Shown piece after piece: positions 5,401 through 13,057 of a stretch of DNA of 64,000 nt. The stretch is from Vicingaceae bacterium (GTDB taxonomy: Bacteria > Bacteroidota > Bacteroidia > Flavobacteriales_E > Vicingaceae). The notes beneath the pieces were generated by a model, which saw only the letters and a program-made list of their open reading frames with translations, did no database searches and was not told the origin of the DNA. Location of the stretch: the NCBI GenBank assembly GCA_018402765.1, contig JAGYIE010000001.1, positions 186,001-250,000 of the forward strand, written 5' to 3'. Positions within the stretch are counted from its first letter, which is position 1; each line of letters begins with the position of its first letter. Made by a program: the position numbers and the translations under genes.

Positions 5401-5943
5401 ATGGTTAATGAACGCCTCATAATCGATAGCAATAAACTACAATTGACTATCAAACGACTTTGTTATCAACTGATTGAAAATCATCATGACTTTTCAGATT
5501 CAGTTATTTTAGGGTTACAGCCACGAGGAATATATATGGCTGACCGCATTCATAAAGAGTTAGAGCAAATCCTGAACAAAAAGGTTCTATTAGGCCGATT
5601 GGATGTTACCTTTTTTCGAGACGATTTTAGGAGACGAGAGAGCCCATTAATTCCAAATGCCACCCAAATCGATTTTACCATAGAGAACAAAAAGGTGATT
5701 TTAATCGATGATGTATTGTATACCGGACGAACCATACGCTCAGGATTAGATGCGATGCTAGCTTACGGTAGACCTCAAAATGTAGAGCTAATGGTTTTGG
5801 TGGACAGAAGATACAGTCGCCACTTGCCAGTGGAAGCCAATTATATCGGTACACAAGTAGACTCAATAGCTGAGGAACGAGTAAAGGTAGAGTGGAAGGA
5901 AACAGACGGAAAAGACCAAATTATACTATATACCCCAGAATAG
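5401..5943 (+). CDS. pyrR: PyrR bifunctional regulator / uracil phosphoribosyltransferase family
   Basis: A 180-residue type I phosphoribosyltransferase of the PyrR family. The PRPP-binding motif VILIDDVLYTGRT lies at about residues 99-111, preceded by the LGLQPRG loop near residue 40. PyrR binds pyr mRNA to attenuate transcription in Firmicutes and has UPRTase activity; in Bacteroidota the RNA role is not established, and no leader attenuator is visible here because the promoter is nearly on the start codon. Its stop is 4 bases from the pyrB start, so the two are co-translated. Family is secure; whether it regulates here is open. Confidence 0.93.
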   Translation: MVNERLIIDSNKLQLTIKRLCYQLIENHHDFSDSVILGLQPRGIYMADRIHKELEQILNKKVLLGRLDVTFFRDDFRRRESPLIPNATQIDFTIENKKVILIDDVLYTGRTIRSGLDAMLAYGRPQNVELMVLVDRRYSRHLPVEANYIGTQVDSIAEERVKVEWKETDGKDQIILYTPE

Positions 5944-5947
5944 CACA

Positions 5948-6898
5948 ATGGAAAAATTATCGACCCGCCACTTATTAGGAATTAAGCACTTAACAAGACA
6001 GGACATTGAATTGATTTTCAATACGGCAGATAATTTTAAAGAAGTAATTAATCGGCCGATTAAAAAAGTTCCTTCTTTACGGGATACCACTATTGCCAAC
6101 TTATTTTTTGAAAATTCTACTCGTACTAAACTGTCATTTGAACTAGCAGAAAAACGACTTTCTGCCGATGTGGTCAATTTTTCGGCCAGTGGATCTTCGG
6201 TTTCTAAAGGAGAGACATTAATTGATACAGTCAGTAACATTCTGGCGATGAAAGTTGATGTAGTAGTAATGCGTCATCCAAATCCAGGTGCAGCAGTATT
6301 CTTATCGAGAAATATTTCAGCAAGTATTATCAATGCAGGAGATGGTACGCACGAGCATCCAACTCAAGCGCTTTTAGATGCTTTCTCAATGCGAGAAAAA
6401 TATGGAGATTTGACCAATAAGAAAGTCGTAATTGTTGGAGATATTGCACATTCTAGGGTAGCTATTTCTAATATTTACTGTCTACAAAAGATGGGAGTAA
6501 AGGTTAAAGTGTGTGGGCCACCAACTCTGATTCCTAAATATATACACGCTTTGGGTGTAGAAGTAGAGTACAATCTAGACGAGGCAATAGCTTGGTGTGA
6601 TGTGGCAATGATGTTGCGTATACAATTGGAGCGACAAGGTGCTGATTACGAAGGTAATCAAGTAAAGTATTTCCCTTCAATTCGGGAGTATGCAAATTTA
6701 TATGGTTTAACACTTGAGCGGTTACATAAATTAAATAAACGCATAACCATTATGCACCCAGGACCAATTAATAGAGGCGTAGAGGTTAGCTCTGATGTAG
6801 CAGATTCTGAACATTCTATCATTCTTAATCAAGTAGAAAATGGAGTAGCGGTAAGAATGGCTGTGCTTTACCTTCTTAGCGGAAGAAATTTAGAATAG
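5948..6898 (+). CDS. pyrB: Aspartate carbamoyltransferase catalytic chain
   Basis: A 316-residue ATCase that joins carbamoyl phosphate and aspartate, the first committed step of pyrimidine synthesis. The carbamoyl-phosphate loop STRT is at residues 57-60, HPTQ at 137-140, and the aspartate-side HPGPINRGVE motif is near the C-terminus. Length matches catalytic chains without an N-terminal extension. No pyrI regulatory gene is next to it. It follows pyrR by 4 bases. A catalytically dead dihydroorotase homologue lies about 3 kb away on the opposite strand; in some bacteria such proteins are structural partners of ATCase. Confidence 0.95.
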   Translation: MEKLSTRHLLGIKHLTRQDIELIFNTADNFKEVINRPIKKVPSLRDTTIANLFFENSTRTKLSFELAEKRLSADVVNFSASGSSVSKGETLIDTVSNILAMKVDVVVMRHPNPGAAVFLSRNISASIINAGDGTHEHPTQALLDAFSMREKYGDLTNKKVVIVGDIAHSRVAISNIYCLQKMGVKVKVCGPPTLIPKYIHALGVEVEYNLDEAIAWCDVAMMLRIQLERQGADYEGNQVKYFPSIREYANLYGLTLERLHKLNKRITIMHPGPINRGVEVSSDVADSEHSIILNQVENGVAVRMAVLYLLSGRNLE

Positions 6899-9093: not shown

Positions 9094-9756
9094 TTAATTG
9101 GTCTTTATTTTAAGCTCACTTGCTATTTTACCTGTTTCAGCATCAAATTGTAACCGTATAATTTGATAACTGCACGTCTTACAAATTCCATCAAAATAAT
9201 AATGCGTCAAGAAATCACCTACTTTGTATCCTGTATGTGTATAATGTGTTATTTTCCCGCGTTTTAATGTAATGCTTTTCCAAATAGCACCTGGATATTC
9301 CGCATTTACTTTAGCTGTTGCTACTTCATAACTCGTTAATTCCTGATTGGCTAGCTGAACTGCATAGTTTAACGTGGCCAATCCACTATCTAAAACTAAA
9401 AATTCGGAATTTAGATAAAAGGTAATTTCATCTACTTTTTGATCACTGGAAATGAGGTGATAGTTGAGTTTATAGCCTAGAATCTGTTCTTTTGTTAGAC
9501 TACTGTCTGCCGGCCAAAGGGAGTCATGATAGTGAATGCTGTCTGTTATTCTTTGAATTTCTTGTAGCTGAAAAGTAGGTTCAAAGCTGGCATTACGTCC
9601 TAAAAATTCCTTTACGTAGTTGAAAACCGAAGTAGTTGCTAGCGAATCGGTATTGATAACTACTTCCTTAGTGGTATCGGCCTCAGAAGTGGTATTTTGA
9701 GAAAATCCTGAGATAGCTAATGAGATAAACAAAAAAAACAAAGATAGCTTTTTCAT
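9094..9756 (-). CDS. Secreted protein of unknown function
   Basis: A 220-residue protein with a signal peptide (about residues 1-19, ending SGFSQ). No family was recognised. The mature part is mixed alpha/beta by eye, with a CKTC pair near residue 195 that could form a disulfide or bind metal. Its ATG overlaps the stop of the dihydroorotase-like gene by one base (TAATG), so it is the last gene of the BatA-like/dihydroorotase-like operon. It faces the 2OG oxygenase gene, stop against stop. Confidence 0.7.
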   Translation of the reverse strand: MKKLSLFFLFISLAISGFSQNTTSEADTTKEVVINTDSLATTSVFNYVKEFLGRNASFEPTFQLQEIQRITDSIHYHDSLWPADSSLTKEQILGYKLNYHLISSDQKVDEITFYLNSEFLVLDSGLATLNYAVQLANQELTSYEVATAKVNAEYPGAIWKSITLKRGKITHYTHTGYKVGDFLTHYYFDGICKTCSYQIIRLQFDAETGKIASELKIKTN

Positions 9757-11030
9757 TATTCTTTAGGTAAAGTAGACTGATTTTTGTTGATGATTCCCAA
9801 CGGTTTGCCAATTAATTTCTTTCCAAATAATGGACTATTTTTAGATTTCGAAATAACCGTATTTTTTTCTAAACTCCATTCCATTGTGGGATTAAATAAT
9901 GTTAGGTTAGCTACTTCACCAACTTGAATGGCTATTTCAGGTAGATTTAAAATTTTTCTAGGATTAGTAGTGAATTTTTCAATTAAATCAGTTAATTCAA
10001 GTTGATTTTTAAGTGCTGTATTGGCAACTGCAAATGCCGTTTGTAAATTGATACTTCCAAAAGCAGCATACTCAAATTCACGTTTTTTTAATTCAATATC
10101 TTCGGGCAGGTGATCTGAACAGATAGCATCTATGGTATTATTTTTCAACCCTTCAATTAATGCTGAAATATGTTTGTTGTCGCGTAAAGGAGGTAATAAT
10201 TTATATCTAGTATCAAATTCTTCTAATACTGTATCGTCTAGTAATAAATTGAGCGCGCATACGTCAGCAGTAATCTGAAGGTTCTTTTTCTTTGCTTCTT
10301 TGATTAGATTTACACTACCGCTTGTGCTTATGGTTGAGAAATGCAGCTTACCATTTGTGTAATCAGTTAAATAGATATCTCTATTAACCATTATTTCTTC
10401 TGCTAATGCTGGAATTCCTTTTAATCCTAAATGCGTGCTTTCCTCTCCTTCATGCATCATTCCTTTGTAGCTTAGGTCAAATTGATTCGGAAATTGAATT
10501 ACTAATCCATCAAATGACTTGCAATACAAAAGTGCTGTTTTTAGGAGGTTGGGATTTTGTACCGATTTTTTATCATCTGTAAAAGCAATTGCTCCTGACG
10601 AGCTCATATCGTGAAGTTCTGCAAGTTCTTTTCCTTCCATATTTTTAGAAACGGTACCCATTGGGTAAACAGAAACTGCACTGCCTTTTGATTGGTTTTT
10701 TATGTATTCTACTAATGATTTAGAATCAACAACTGGCAAGGTTGCAGGAGATAACGAAACTCCGGTAAATCCGCCTGCTGCTGCTGCTTTAATTCCGGAA
10801 GCTATCGTTTCCTTATGTTCATATCCAGGATCTGAAAAGTGCGCTCTTAAGTCATGCCATCCTGCAGATATATGCAAATTTTCAGCCTCAAAAATAGGTG
10901 TGTTAGCAGGTGGAGTTAATGCGATTCCTAGTTGCTCAATTCTCCCACTAACTACATTTAGATCTACTACCTGATTGTGAAAAGGAGATGAGCGGTCGAT
11001 TAATTTTGCAGCACGAATAAACAGCTTCAT
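9756..11030 (-). CDS. Dihydroorotase-like amidohydrolase, probably catalytically inactive
   Basis: A 424-residue protein that aligns along its length with class I dihydroorotase (PyrC). The residues that hold the two metals are mostly gone. The usual DxHxH reads D60-L-R62-A-H64, so the first His is Arg. The His of the QH-containing strand is F180. The HVST His is T233 (STIST). The SDHAPH motif reads SDHLPE, keeping D306. The GYEHKET and FTDD stretches are kept. I infer a pseudoenzyme, as with the PyrC'-type partners of some ATCases, rather than a working dihydroorotase. It lies 11 bases after the BatA-like gene and overlaps the next gene by one base. A working pyrC should be elsewhere in the genome. 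Confidence 0.85.
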   Translation of the reverse strand: MKLFIRAAKLIDRSSPFHNQVVDLNVVSGRIEQLGIALTPPANTPIFEAENLHISAGWHDLRAHFSDPGYEHKETIASGIKAAAAGGFTGVSLSPATLPVVDSKSLVEYIKNQSKGSAVSVYPMGTVSKNMEGKELAELHDMSSSGAIAFTDDKKSVQNPNLLKTALLYCKSFDGLVIQFPNQFDLSYKGMMHEGEESTHLGLKGIPALAEEIMVNRDIYLTDYTNGKLHFSTISTSGSVNLIKEAKKKNLQITADVCALNLLLDDTVLEEFDTRYKLLPPLRDNKHISALIEGLKNNTIDAICSDHLPEDIELKKREFEYAAFGSINLQTAFAVANTALKNQLELTDLIEKFTTNPRKILNLPEIAIQVGEVANLTLFNPTMEWSLEKNTVISKSKNSPLFGKKLIGKPLGIINKNQSTLPKE

Positions 11031-11041
11031 AAGGTGTTTTT

Positions 11042-13057
11042 TTAATGATAAAAACGTAAAAGTAAAATTTCACATCCTAGAAATAGCAAACATAATAAGA
11101 TTGCGTATTTCCACAAAGTTATTCCGCTATTGCTGTTCGCAATTTCATTGGTTAATAACTCATTGGTAGAGGTGAAAAGTGTATAATTTTTTAGCTCACT
11201 TTTTATAAGTAAATCAGTTAATTCTTCTGTACTATAAGTGGCTAATTGTGATTCGTTTCTATTGTAATTGAATGCTAATCCTTCAACTGCGTTCGCTCCA
11301 TTTTCTAAGGAGTAATTGCCAGCTACTGTTATCTGTCCGTGAACAAAAAGCGCTAATTCTTGATTCATTTTGCGTTGCTCTGGAATAAAATCAATTGATT
11401 CTCCAACAATTCGCATAGGTCTGTCACCACTTTTTAGCATTGCTGTTGTCAGTTGATTATTTTCATTTATAGTATGAAACAGCGTATTAGATTGCAAACT
11501 ATTTAGTGCAATATTATAAACCGTAGGCACAAATATGGCATGTTCAGTAAAGCTACTTTCTTCATTTGATAGACTTGTTGCTGCAAGGTAAACTCTTCCT
11601 TTGCTCATTGATTTTGTAATCAAATATGGTTTGCGATTTTGAAAACGCATTATGACTTCTCCAGAGTTAGGCAACTGATAATAATTGTTGACAGTAGGTA
11701 AGGTTAAATTTTTTGGTAATTCATCAAATACATTTCTATAAATCGGCGATTGCTCATTTATGTAATCGATTTTTATTGGTGTAGTCATTCTAGTATTTAA
11801 TCGCCATCCAAAAGGAGAAAGTAATGCGTTTTGGTTTTCTAAATTACTCTTGTCAGGAAAAATCAATAGATGCCCACCGTTTTCAACATACTTGTTGAGT
11901 TCTTTAATTAACCCACTCGAATAAGTAATTAATTCATTGAGTATTATTAACCGATGTTTACCGAATTCTTGATAGTTTAATTGATTAATATCTAGCTTGG
12001 TTAAGGTAATAAATGGGTCATTTTGAAATAAAGCTGAAATTGCTTCACTTTTTGATGTCGTTTGGAGCGAAGCAATGTTTAACTGACTTTCTACTTTGTA
12101 AGAAAAGTAAAAGTGGTCATCAAAGGTAATGGGGTAATCTTTAATACTAATTTCACCTGCTTGAATTCCGCTCGTTCCATTTGAATAATTTAATGTATCA
12201 TAAGTCGTTTCGAAAGGCCCGATATTAAAACTTCCCGGGGATTTAATCTGTCCATTTATAGTCAGCCGAATAGGAATATTTTCATAATTCTTATCCGATA
12301 AATTCACTATTTTCACCACCAGTTGTTCCTTTCCGTTGTACTGACGAAAAGGACTGTAAAACCAGCAGCTATCAATATACAAGTTGCTAGCTAATTCTGA
12401 AATGATGGGAACAAATTGCAAATCGATTAAGCTATCGTTTTGCAATTCTTCAATTTTAGCACTGCTTTTTTGAAAATCGGAAATTAGAAAAATTGATTTA
12501 TTTGGAGCAGCATGATCAATGATTATATCCTTTAATCTGGCTGTAACTTCAGGTATTGATTTTGTATTTGGTGAGAGTTGAATACCTTGCAGTTCTTCCA
12601 GAAACTGTTCTTTATTAACTGGTCGCTGATGTTTGGTTTCAAAATCATTGGTAAGAATTAAAAACTGATCATCAGGTTTATAGGCATCCAAAATATTGAT
12701 GACTCTATTTTTAGCCACATCAAGTGATTGTCCATCTGCTGTTTCAGCTTGCATGCTGAAAGAGTTATCTATATATATTCCAATGAGGGATTTTCCTACT
12801 TTTTGTTCTTGGTCGGAAGTAGGTAATATAGGTTGAGCAAATGCTATAATTAAAAAAGCTAAAGCCAGTAATCGACTAAGCAATACCAATAAATGCTTTA
12901 ATTTATTAGTTGATTGTGTTTCTTCTTGTACACTTTTTAGAAAACGTACGTTGGTGAAATAGACGGTTTTGTATCTCCTAAAGTTAAATAAGTGAATAAC
13001 AATAGGTATCGCTAAAGCGAATAAGGCATACAGAAACTCAGGGTAGACAAATTTCAT
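11042..13057 (-). CDS. BatA-domain membrane protein (VWA-like)
   Basis: A 671-residue protein starting with the typical BatA N-terminus: a membrane segment from about residue 8 (ALFALAIPIVIHLF), then RRYKTVYFTNVRFLKS, and a second membrane segment near 60-80. A von Willebrand A-like fold follows, with IGIYIDNSFSM giving a D-x-S-x-S-like metal site. The long periplasmic middle ends in a C-terminal membrane helix (about 648-668). Such proteins in Bacteroidota are linked to aerotolerance (Bat) operons, but no other bat gene is here. It is the first gene of the operon with the dihydroorotase-like and secreted proteins. Confidence 0.82.
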   Translation of the reverse strand: MKFVYPEFLYALFALAIPIVIHLFNFRRYKTVYFTNVRFLKSVQEETQSTNKLKHLLVLLSRLLALAFLIIAFAQPILPTSDQEQKVGKSLIGIYIDNSFSMQAETADGQSLDVAKNRVINILDAYKPDDQFLILTNDFETKHQRPVNKEQFLEELQGIQLSPNTKSIPEVTARLKDIIIDHAAPNKSIFLISDFQKSSAKIEELQNDSLIDLQFVPIISELASNLYIDSCWFYSPFRQYNGKEQLVVKIVNLSDKNYENIPIRLTINGQIKSPGSFNIGPFETTYDTLNYSNGTSGIQAGEISIKDYPITFDDHFYFSYKVESQLNIASLQTTSKSEAISALFQNDPFITLTKLDINQLNYQEFGKHRLIILNELITYSSGLIKELNKYVENGGHLLIFPDKSNLENQNALLSPFGWRLNTRMTTPIKIDYINEQSPIYRNVFDELPKNLTLPTVNNYYQLPNSGEVIMRFQNRKPYLITKSMSKGRVYLAATSLSNEESSFTEHAIFVPTVYNIALNSLQSNTLFHTINENNQLTTAMLKSGDRPMRIVGESIDFIPEQRKMNQELALFVHGQITVAGNYSLENGANAVEGLAFNYNRNESQLATYSTEELTDLLIKSELKNYTLFTSTNELLTNEIANSNSGITLWKYAILLCLLFLGCEILLLRFYH

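What the first reader, a model, noticed from the sequence alone, without database searches (positions are those of the whole stretch)
9756..11030. Dihydroorotase homologue that has lost its metal-binding histidines
The protein aligns with class I dihydroorotase, but R62 replaces the first His of the DxHxH motif, F180 replaces a metal His, T233 replaces the HVST His, and SDHAPH reads SDHLPE. Only some Asp residues and His64 remain. In Pseudomonas-type ATCases an inactive DHO-like partner (PyrC') holds the enzyme together. PyrB here has no extension, and pyrB is only 3 kb away. The protein may be such a structural partner, or a new-function pseudoenzyme coupled to a BatA-like membrane protein.
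Basis: partly seen in the sequence, partly recalled or inferred. Interest (0 to 1): 0.55.

Follow-up and report, generated by a model that had tools for sequence, protein, structure and literature searches.

The report
Dead dihydroorotase, probable ATCase scaffold
This gene, which standard annotation would call the pyrimidine enzyme dihydroorotase, almost certainly no longer works as one, and most likely survives as the structural partner of the enzyme of the previous step, a role known in Pseudomonas and rhizobia and apparently shared across much of this large bacterial class.

Summary
Window 9756-11030(-) encodes a 424-aa class I dihydroorotase (DHO) homologue with R62, F180, T233 and SDHLPE in place of conserved residues; 4 of 11 checked residues remain. 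It is under purifying selection, and the genome has an intact PyrC. It belongs to a dead-DHO clade: of 106 sequences read from the class and named kin, 104 lack the paired metal histidines; of 26 from other classes of the phylum, 22 are intact. In 295 class genomes the DHO-like protein follows the type of aspartate transcarbamoylase (ATCase): 253 of 266 with class A-type PyrB have it, 0 of 14 with class B- or C-type PyrB; none of 11 PyrI genomes has it. Its BatA-like neighbour is sometimes kept without it and sometimes lost beside it. Its most conserved stretch (192-213) lies in the region of a loop that in Aquifex is ordered only with ATCase bound. Best explanation (0.77): scaffold subunit of a class A2-like ATCase, as PyrC'/PyrX, but unlinked from pyrB and usually behind batA. 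Binding is untested. Exceptions: family f84, G430, three PyrB-less genomes. One class genome, G072, has an intact, probably acquired DHO with pyrB.

The parts
9756..11030 (-). pseudo-dihydroorotase (pDHO), 424 aa
   Evidence: TIGR00857 301.8 bits; PDB Aquifex DHO E about 1e-69; AF2 pLDDT 94.1, TM 0.93 to 3d6n_A
10839..10847 (-). R62-A63-H64 codons: remains of the HxH metal motif
10575..10577 (-). D152 codon (Aquifex D153, kept)
10491..10493 (-). F180 codon (Aquifex H180, lost)
10332..10334 (-). T233 codon (Aquifex H232, lost)
10101..10115 (-). D306-H-L-P-E310 codons (D305 kept, H309 lost)
10392..10457 (-). residues 192-213, the most conserved 22-residue window of the dead clade, in the region where the AF2 model is least sure (blocks 181-210)
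5948..6898 (+). PyrB, 316 aa, class A-type ATCase, the inferred partner
5401..5943 (+). PyrR-like regulator upstream of pyrB (the pair recurs in relatives)
   Evidence: the name PyrR is recalled, no family search was run on it
11042..13057 (-). BatA-like membrane protein directly upstream, 11 bases before the pDHO ATG
   Evidence: PF07584 77.8 bits; adjacent in 72 of 88 dead loci with enough flank
9094..9756 (-). downstream 220-aa protein without a family match, its start overlapping the pDHO stop (TAATG)
   Evidence: found beside pDHO in L066, L084 and L127

Best explanation
The protein is a catalytically dead DHO that serves as the scaffold subunit of ATCase. As dimers it would bridge two PyrB trimers into a 6+6 dodecamer and stabilise the trimer, whose active sites lie between subunits. 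Dihydroorotase activity is supplied by a separate intact PyrC. Its clade descends from active DHOs, some of which are still encoded behind pyrR-pyrB, and its gene now usually stands behind batA. Shown here: homology, loss of active-site residues, purifying selection, an intact PyrC, co-occurrence with class A-type PyrB, absence with class B/PyrI and class C-type PyrB, and retained conservation of 192-213. Inferred: physical binding, stoichiometry, and need for ATCase activity.
For: (1) Dead: of 11 residues the window keeps 4. The 22 intact rows keep 10 or 11; they were chosen by the six ligands, so the informative part is the other five, of which four are fixed in them. Of 16 columns nearly fixed in intact rows and variable in 91 dead rows, 13 lie in or next to ligand or substrate motifs (61, 62, 64, 66, 94, 96, 153, 154, 180, 182, 233, 308, 310); 260, 314 and 326 were not placed. 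(2) Intact PyrC in the genome: L003. (3) In one set of 295 class genomes PyrI is found in 11 (the control rings in 7 of 14 named genomes, a Bacteroides among them), and none of the 11 has the DHO-like protein: the best profile match in each is an intact lysine-type PyrC. By PyrB type: class A 253 of 266, classes B/C 0 of 14; Fisher p 1.3e-16, which ignores relatedness. (4) Apparently separate replacements or losses of class A PyrB, each without pDHO: families with class B PyrB and PyrI; f4, whose PyrB groups with B. subtilis/S. aureus (96*); G282 in genus g124 (class B-like PyrB; five of the seven sampled members of g124 keep both, G388 shows neither); and f74 (no ATCase; three genomes). (5) BatA is kept without pDHO in nine genomes that lack class A PyrB (G322, G349, G282, G442, G232, G267, G297, G166, G388), and pDHO with class A PyrB is kept in ten genomes with no or very weak BatA in the genome; a BatA profile confirmed that none lies beside pDHO in the loci read from three of these groups. 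(6) Pairing with pyrB in relatives: PyrR-PyrB-DHO in L030 and L045-L047; PyrB in the locus with dead DHO in four of four f12 genomes and in proteobacterial L213-L216. (7) Residues 192-213 are the most conserved 22-residue window in 85 dead rows; the mean entropy of 194-217 is unchanged between intact and dead rows (1.20, 1.17 bits) while that of active-site segments rose (83-99: 0.50 to 1.40). (8) S. meliloti smc01361 disruption gives pyrimidine auxotrophy (passage of PMC5929573).
Against: No direct evidence of binding. f84 (three genomes of 93-95% completeness, one of 82%) has PyrB in the class A clade but no pDHO even by profile. G430 (100% complete) has class A PyrB but neither pDHO nor BatA. 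G213 (100%) has a very divergent pDHO and no PyrB in three searches; G334 (95%) and G387 (91%) also have the protein without PyrB. BatA adjacency is old and common and the model does not explain it. BatA is weak or missing in 9 of 11 PyrI genomes and in f4, so in those cases loss of pDHO does not tell the two partners apart. In the PyrB tree Aquifex PyrB lies outside the class A-type fork on a long branch, and that fork has support 94, not starred. B. subtilis PyrB, about as close to the window PyrB as Aquifex PyrB, works as a bare trimer. PyrB columns specific to class A gave no signal. f12 shows that a dead DHO can stay beside pyrB, so the move behind batA is not required by the role.
Confidence: 0.77

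Rival explanations
1. The dead DHO has taken a new role with the BatA-like membrane protein (an envelope or stress function), and its link to ATCase is only historical.
For: BatA lies directly upstream in 72 of 88 dead loci with enough flank, in 21 coded families, and in 0 of 22 loci of intact DHO; 11 bases separate the genes here. BatA is weak or missing in 9 of 11 PyrI genomes, in f4 and in G430, which also lack pDHO.
Against: BatA persists without pDHO in nine genomes that lack class A PyrB, and pDHO persists in ten genomes with no or very weak BatA that keep class A PyrB.
Confidence: 0.1
2. It still catalyses something (dihydroorotase or a new hydrolase reaction) with an altered mononuclear site built from H64, D152 and D306.
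For: These three residues remain; the aspartates are kept in 84 and 66 of 91 dead rows. Aquifex DHO without H180 and H232 is still active (passages of PMC3880350), so only the first-site losses are decisive.
Against: H61 is kept in 5 and H63 in 7 of 91 rows, with 51 different six-ligand strings. The four f77 sequences read have lost all six ligands. No one replacement site is conserved, as a shared new activity would need.
Confidence: 0.06
3. It is chiefly an allosteric sensor of ATCase (a counterpart of PyrI) rather than a passive scaffold, with the vacated pocket binding a ligand.
For: It is not found with PyrI (0 of 11), and nine columns are conserved in dead but not intact rows (D23, D141, M142, Y224, L269, F272, D273, L291, E313).
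Against: Pocket residues vary greatly between families. In P. aeruginosa nucleotide inhibition was put down to complex instability, not allostery (discussion of PMC7053772 read).
Confidence: 0.05

Closest known systems
PyrC' / pDHO of Pseudomonas class A2 ATCase
   Same: DHO homologue without metal ligands, with a related PyrB; scaffold role shown there (abstract, introduction and discussion of PMC7053772 read)
   Different: Pseudomonas PyrC' itself was not fetched; a gammaproteobacterial relative, L216, falls with other proteobacterial rows, outside the class clade, on a long branch. Here the gene is not beside pyrB and usually follows batA; binding untested
PyrX (smc01361) of Sinorhizobium meliloti
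   Same: DHO-like gene needed for pyrimidine synthesis although an essential PyrC exists (passage of PMC5929573). The Sinorhizobium relative L213 has ligand string RFNEES and lies beside PyrB
   Different: Proteobacterial clade; adjacent to pyrB
Aquifex aeolicus DHO-ATC complex (3d6n, 4bjh)
   Same: Fold (TM 0.93, 34% identity); loop A ordered only in the complex (passages of PMC3880350)
   Different: Aquifex DHO is active with all ligands; its PyrB lies outside the class A-type fork of my tree
Dead DHO of family f12 (L056, L232, L234, L235)
   Same: Dead DHO of the same phylum with PyrB in the locus
   Different: A separate dead lineage in the fuller tree
pseudo-DHO domain of fungal Ura2
   Same: Dead DHO kept in an ATCase protein (introduction of PMC7053772)
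   Different: A fused domain; not compared here

Membership tests
Class A2 ATCase pseudo-DHO (PyrC'/PyrX) | Full-length class I DHO homologue | tested here: met
Class A2 ATCase pseudo-DHO (PyrC'/PyrX) | Metal and substrate residues lost | tested here: met
   4 of 11 kept
Class A2 ATCase pseudo-DHO (PyrC'/PyrX) | Active PyrC encoded elsewhere | tested here: met
   L003 intact by sequence; activity not measured
Class A2 ATCase pseudo-DHO (PyrC'/PyrX) | Partner PyrB of the DHO-coupled (class A) type | tested here: met
   Groups with PyrBs that lie beside DHO genes, apart from B. subtilis/S. aureus; support 94, not starred; Aquifex PyrB outside on a long branch
Class A2 ATCase pseudo-DHO (PyrC'/PyrX) | Gene beside pyrB | tested here: not met
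   No PyrB in the 88 dead loci examined, many of them only about 4 kb; 2.9 kb apart and on opposite strands in the window, not conserved. Usual, not essential to the definition
Class A2 ATCase pseudo-DHO (PyrC'/PyrX) | PyrB N-terminal extension | tested here: not met
   PyrB aligns from residue 7 with residue 2 of B. subtilis and Aquifex PyrB; the extension is dispensable in P. aeruginosa (abstract of PMC7053772)
Class A2 ATCase pseudo-DHO (PyrC'/PyrX) | Stoichiometric complex with PyrB, needed for ATCase activity | not testable with these tools
   Needs biochemistry
Dihydroorotase (EC 3.5.2.3) | Intact metal site and substrate residues | tested here: not met

The most novel reading that the evidence does not exclude
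A class-wide pseudoenzyme subunit, wired into a membrane-protein (batA) operon, couples ATCase assembly to the cell envelope: pDHO both scaffolds ATCase and receives an envelope signal or tether, while its vacated pocket is free to drift (to no ligands at all in the f77 sequences).
Probability: 0.1. Interest if true: 0.72.

Novelty: new variant of a known kind. Interest (0 to 1): 0.45.

Why it matters
TIGR00857 names this protein and the relatives L093, L056 and L213 dihydroorotase, and the Rufibacter relative is so annotated. Pathway reconstructions would therefore credit many genomes of this class with an enzyme that cannot work and overlook a subunit that ATCase may need. It is also a natural experiment on pseudoenzymes: a dead scaffold kept with its partner, and absent where the partner has been replaced by an ATCase of another type.

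Tried and rejected
Pseudogene or sequencing error: rejected (open frame, dN/dS 0.065 and 0.081). The only DHO in the genome: rejected (L003). Recent loss in this genome: rejected (class-wide clade). f77 as a counter-example: the plain protein search missed it; a profile gave a divergent pDHO in 9 of 9 genomes, four read residue by residue, two re-found in refetched stretches, three known from the hit table only. f4 as a counter-example: its PyrB is class C-type. f84 stays a counter-example. PyrB columns specific to class A as an interface footprint: uninformative (f84 keeps 0.58 of 12, f77 0.58-0.75).

(a) G072 against G166 as a loss of dead DHO within genus g15: G072's protein (L231) is intact, with PyrB in the locus, and falls outside the class clade. 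(b) L056 as sister of the class clade: with four f12 rows the group falls apart from it. G442 was also dropped as a separate event, since its family already lacks pDHO. For these, and because BatA is weak or missing in most PyrI genomes, confidence went from 0.80 to 0.77 and the BatA rival from 0.08 to 0.10.

Literature: searches listed no paper whose title or abstract start concerned a dead DHO or ATCase partner in Bacteroidetes; only listings were seen (one search listed 20 of 2,381, 20 of 44, 20 of 24), and most subscription papers are not held. Labedan et al. 2004 on ATCase classes was seen only in a reference list.

Counting notes. Presence was counted by hand at E<1e-30 (250 of 295), then nine f77 genomes were added. 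PyrB type is by E-value against the window PyrB (class B-like 1e-33 to 1e-41, 12 genomes; f4, 2; none or E>1e-10, 15; the remaining 266 taken as class A), checked on a tree for part of them. The 253 include G072 (intact), and the metal site was not read in all. The 13 class A genomes without the protein: f84 x4; G291, G317, G332, G399, G426, G453 (under 90% complete); G422 (BatA at a contig edge); G434 (191-aa fragment at a contig edge); G430. Set apart before the dead/intact comparison: three amidohydrolase rows (L166, L178, L187), 26 lysine-type rows, L056, L081, L218 and five proteobacterial rows; six very divergent rows were also left out. The 106 rows read are the 91 (75 coded class genomes, 16 named records) and 15; L242 and L246 lack the first-histidine columns and L247 repeats L240.

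Full report
What is there. The gene at 9756-11030(-) encodes 424 aa, a full-length class I DHO homologue, closest by sequence among solved structures to Aquifex aeolicus DHO. An AlphaFold2 model from an alignment of 35 family members has mean pLDDT 94.1 and pTM 0.93 and matches DHO structures at TM 0.93-0.94; the ATCase-bound Aquifex chain 3d6n_A ranks second after a Bacillus DHO. Of 11 residues checked (six metal ligands and five others, the roles of some recalled), the window keeps four; 91 dead rows keep 0 to 8, mostly 3 to 5; 22 intact rows, chosen by the six ligands, keep 10 or 11. The gene is under purifying selection. The genome has an intact PyrC of another type: L003 scores 725.4 bits against a cut-off of 535 for PRK09236, with His motifs and lysine in place.

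How widespread. In 295 genomes drawn from the class, 250 have a strong match (E<1e-30, counted by hand). I read the metal site in 106 sequences of the class and named kin (91, 15): 104 lack the H61/H63 pair. The two exceptions are L093, which keeps the first-site ligands but has lost both second-site histidines, and L231 (G072), which is fully intact. In a tree of 113 sequences the 75 dead class sequences, L093 with them, form one clade (100*), next to intact DHOs of other classes of the phylum; L231 falls outside, beside an actinobacterial sequence, so G072 probably acquired it (quick method, several long branches). Dead proteobacterial rows form another lineage (99*), and four f12 rows of another class of the phylum a third (100*). 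An earlier tree had put the single f12 row L056 next to the class clade; the fuller tree does not support that. In the class clade the lost residues differ from family to family (51 strings among 91 rows), as expected if the site is no longer under selection; L093 suggests that the histidines went several times over. The four f77 sequences read keep no ligand.

What it goes with. PyrI occurs in 11 of the 295 genomes; none has the DHO-like protein, their best profile matches being intact lysine-type PyrC. By PyrB type (tree): class A-type, 253 of 266 have the DHO-like protein (G072's intact one included); class B or C type, 0 of 14; no PyrB found, 6 of 15. Fisher p is 1.3e-16, but genomes are related, so separate events matter more. 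I see four: families with class B PyrB and PyrI; f4 with class C-type PyrB; G282 with class B-like PyrB in genus g124, five of whose seven sampled members keep both; and f74 without ATCase. All lack the dead DHO. No species tree was made, so their independence rests on family and genus codes. G282 is a draft in 410 contigs. Of the 13 class A genomes without the protein, six are under 90% complete and two are cut at contig edges; four f84 genomes and G430 are unexplained. Of the six with the protein but no PyrB, three are 61-76% complete; G213, G334 and G387 are not explained by completeness.

What about BatA. A BatA-like gene lies directly upstream in 72 of 88 dead loci with at least 800 bases of flank (L115 is a 73rd if its overlapping stop-to-stop frames are allowed), and in none of 22 loci of intact DHO. 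Nine genomes keep BatA but lack both the dead DHO and class A PyrB (G322, G349, G282, G442, G232, G267, G297, G166, G388); in G388 the next gene is dnaX-like (my reading). Ten genomes keep the dead DHO and class A PyrB with no BatA match (G002, G423, G111, G115, G126) or one weaker than 1e-6 (G076, G194, G033, G007, G091); these fall in three families. A BatA profile found none beside pDHO in the loci read from these families. Against this, BatA is weak or missing in 9 of 11 PyrI genomes, in f4 and in G430, where it cannot tell the partners apart. The tie to ATCase looks the stronger; why the gene sits behind batA is open.

Where it came from. Outside the class, PyrB lies directly before the DHO gene, with PyrR before it, in four of 22 intact loci (L030, L045, L046, L047), and PyrB is in the locus in four of four dead f12 loci. 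A plausible history is an active DHO coupled to ATCase, loss of activity, then a place behind batA; the order of the last two steps is not resolved.

How it probably works. In Pseudomonas the inactive DHO chain binds PyrB 1:1 in a dodecamer and is needed for an active trimer (abstract, introduction and discussion of PMC7053772). In S. meliloti, disruption of the equivalent gene gives pyrimidine auxotrophy (passage of PMC5929573). Conservation here fits the same job: active-site segments have relaxed (83-99: 0.50 to 1.40 bits; 53-75: 0.68 to 1.31), while 194-217 has not (1.20, 1.17), and the most conserved 22-residue window in 85 dead rows is 192-213 (the two sets differ in size and spread). 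The model is least sure at 181-210 (blocks 78, 50, 70) and at its last residues. In Aquifex, loop A, which holds Cys181, is mostly disordered in free DHO and ordered in the ATCase complex (passages of PMC3880350); that it reaches to about 213 is my inference.

Verdict. A real pseudoenzyme, most likely the scaffold subunit of a class A2-like ATCase, widespread in this class and misnamed dihydroorotase. The kind is known; the separate dead clade, the gene unlinked from pyrB, the batA neighbourhood and the depth of decay make it a new variant. Binding and function are not shown here.

Noticed in passing
L002 (G000:C1:39656-40990, outside the window): A second PRK09236-type DHO paralogue, 52% identical to L003 and over the curated cut-off, has the His motifs but lacks the lysine of GVKVFMG (reads GVSDDGLYF); possibly another altered DHO in the same genome.
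   Followed up: partly
L093 1480-2766: Inside the dead clade but keeps H61, H63, D153, D305 and R65; since Aquifex DHO without the second-site histidines is active, it could be a late survivor or still active.
   Followed up: partly
L231 (G072:C23:494500-495762): The one fully intact DHO of this type read in the class, with PyrB in the locus and outside the class clade: probably an acquired active pair.
   Followed up: partly
L173, L181, L190, L192 (family f77): Extremely eroded relatives with none of the six metal ligands; a profile finds such a protein in all nine sampled genomes of the genus, all with PyrB.
   Followed up: partly
L056, L232, L234, L235 (family f12): Dead DHO with PyrB in the locus in another class of the phylum, an apparently separate loss of activity.
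   Followed up: partly
G249:C1:3673933-3675185; G240:C88; G405:C153: The DHO-like gene lies in two frames in G249 and has one TGA inside the match in G240 and G405; sequencing error, recent decay or another code not examined.
   Followed up: no
L217 (Rufibacter tibetensis 12.5-kb record): A small circular record called a plasmid carries the batA-like and dead DHO genes with glycosyltransferases; may be a misassembled chromosomal piece.
   Followed up: no
window 9094-9756: 220-aa protein without a family match, its start overlapping the pDHO stop; found beside pDHO in L066, L084 and L127.
   Followed up: no
G430: Complete-looking genome with pyrR-pyrB but with both batA and the dead DHO missing, unlike its sampled congeners; gap or true loss.
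   Followed up: no
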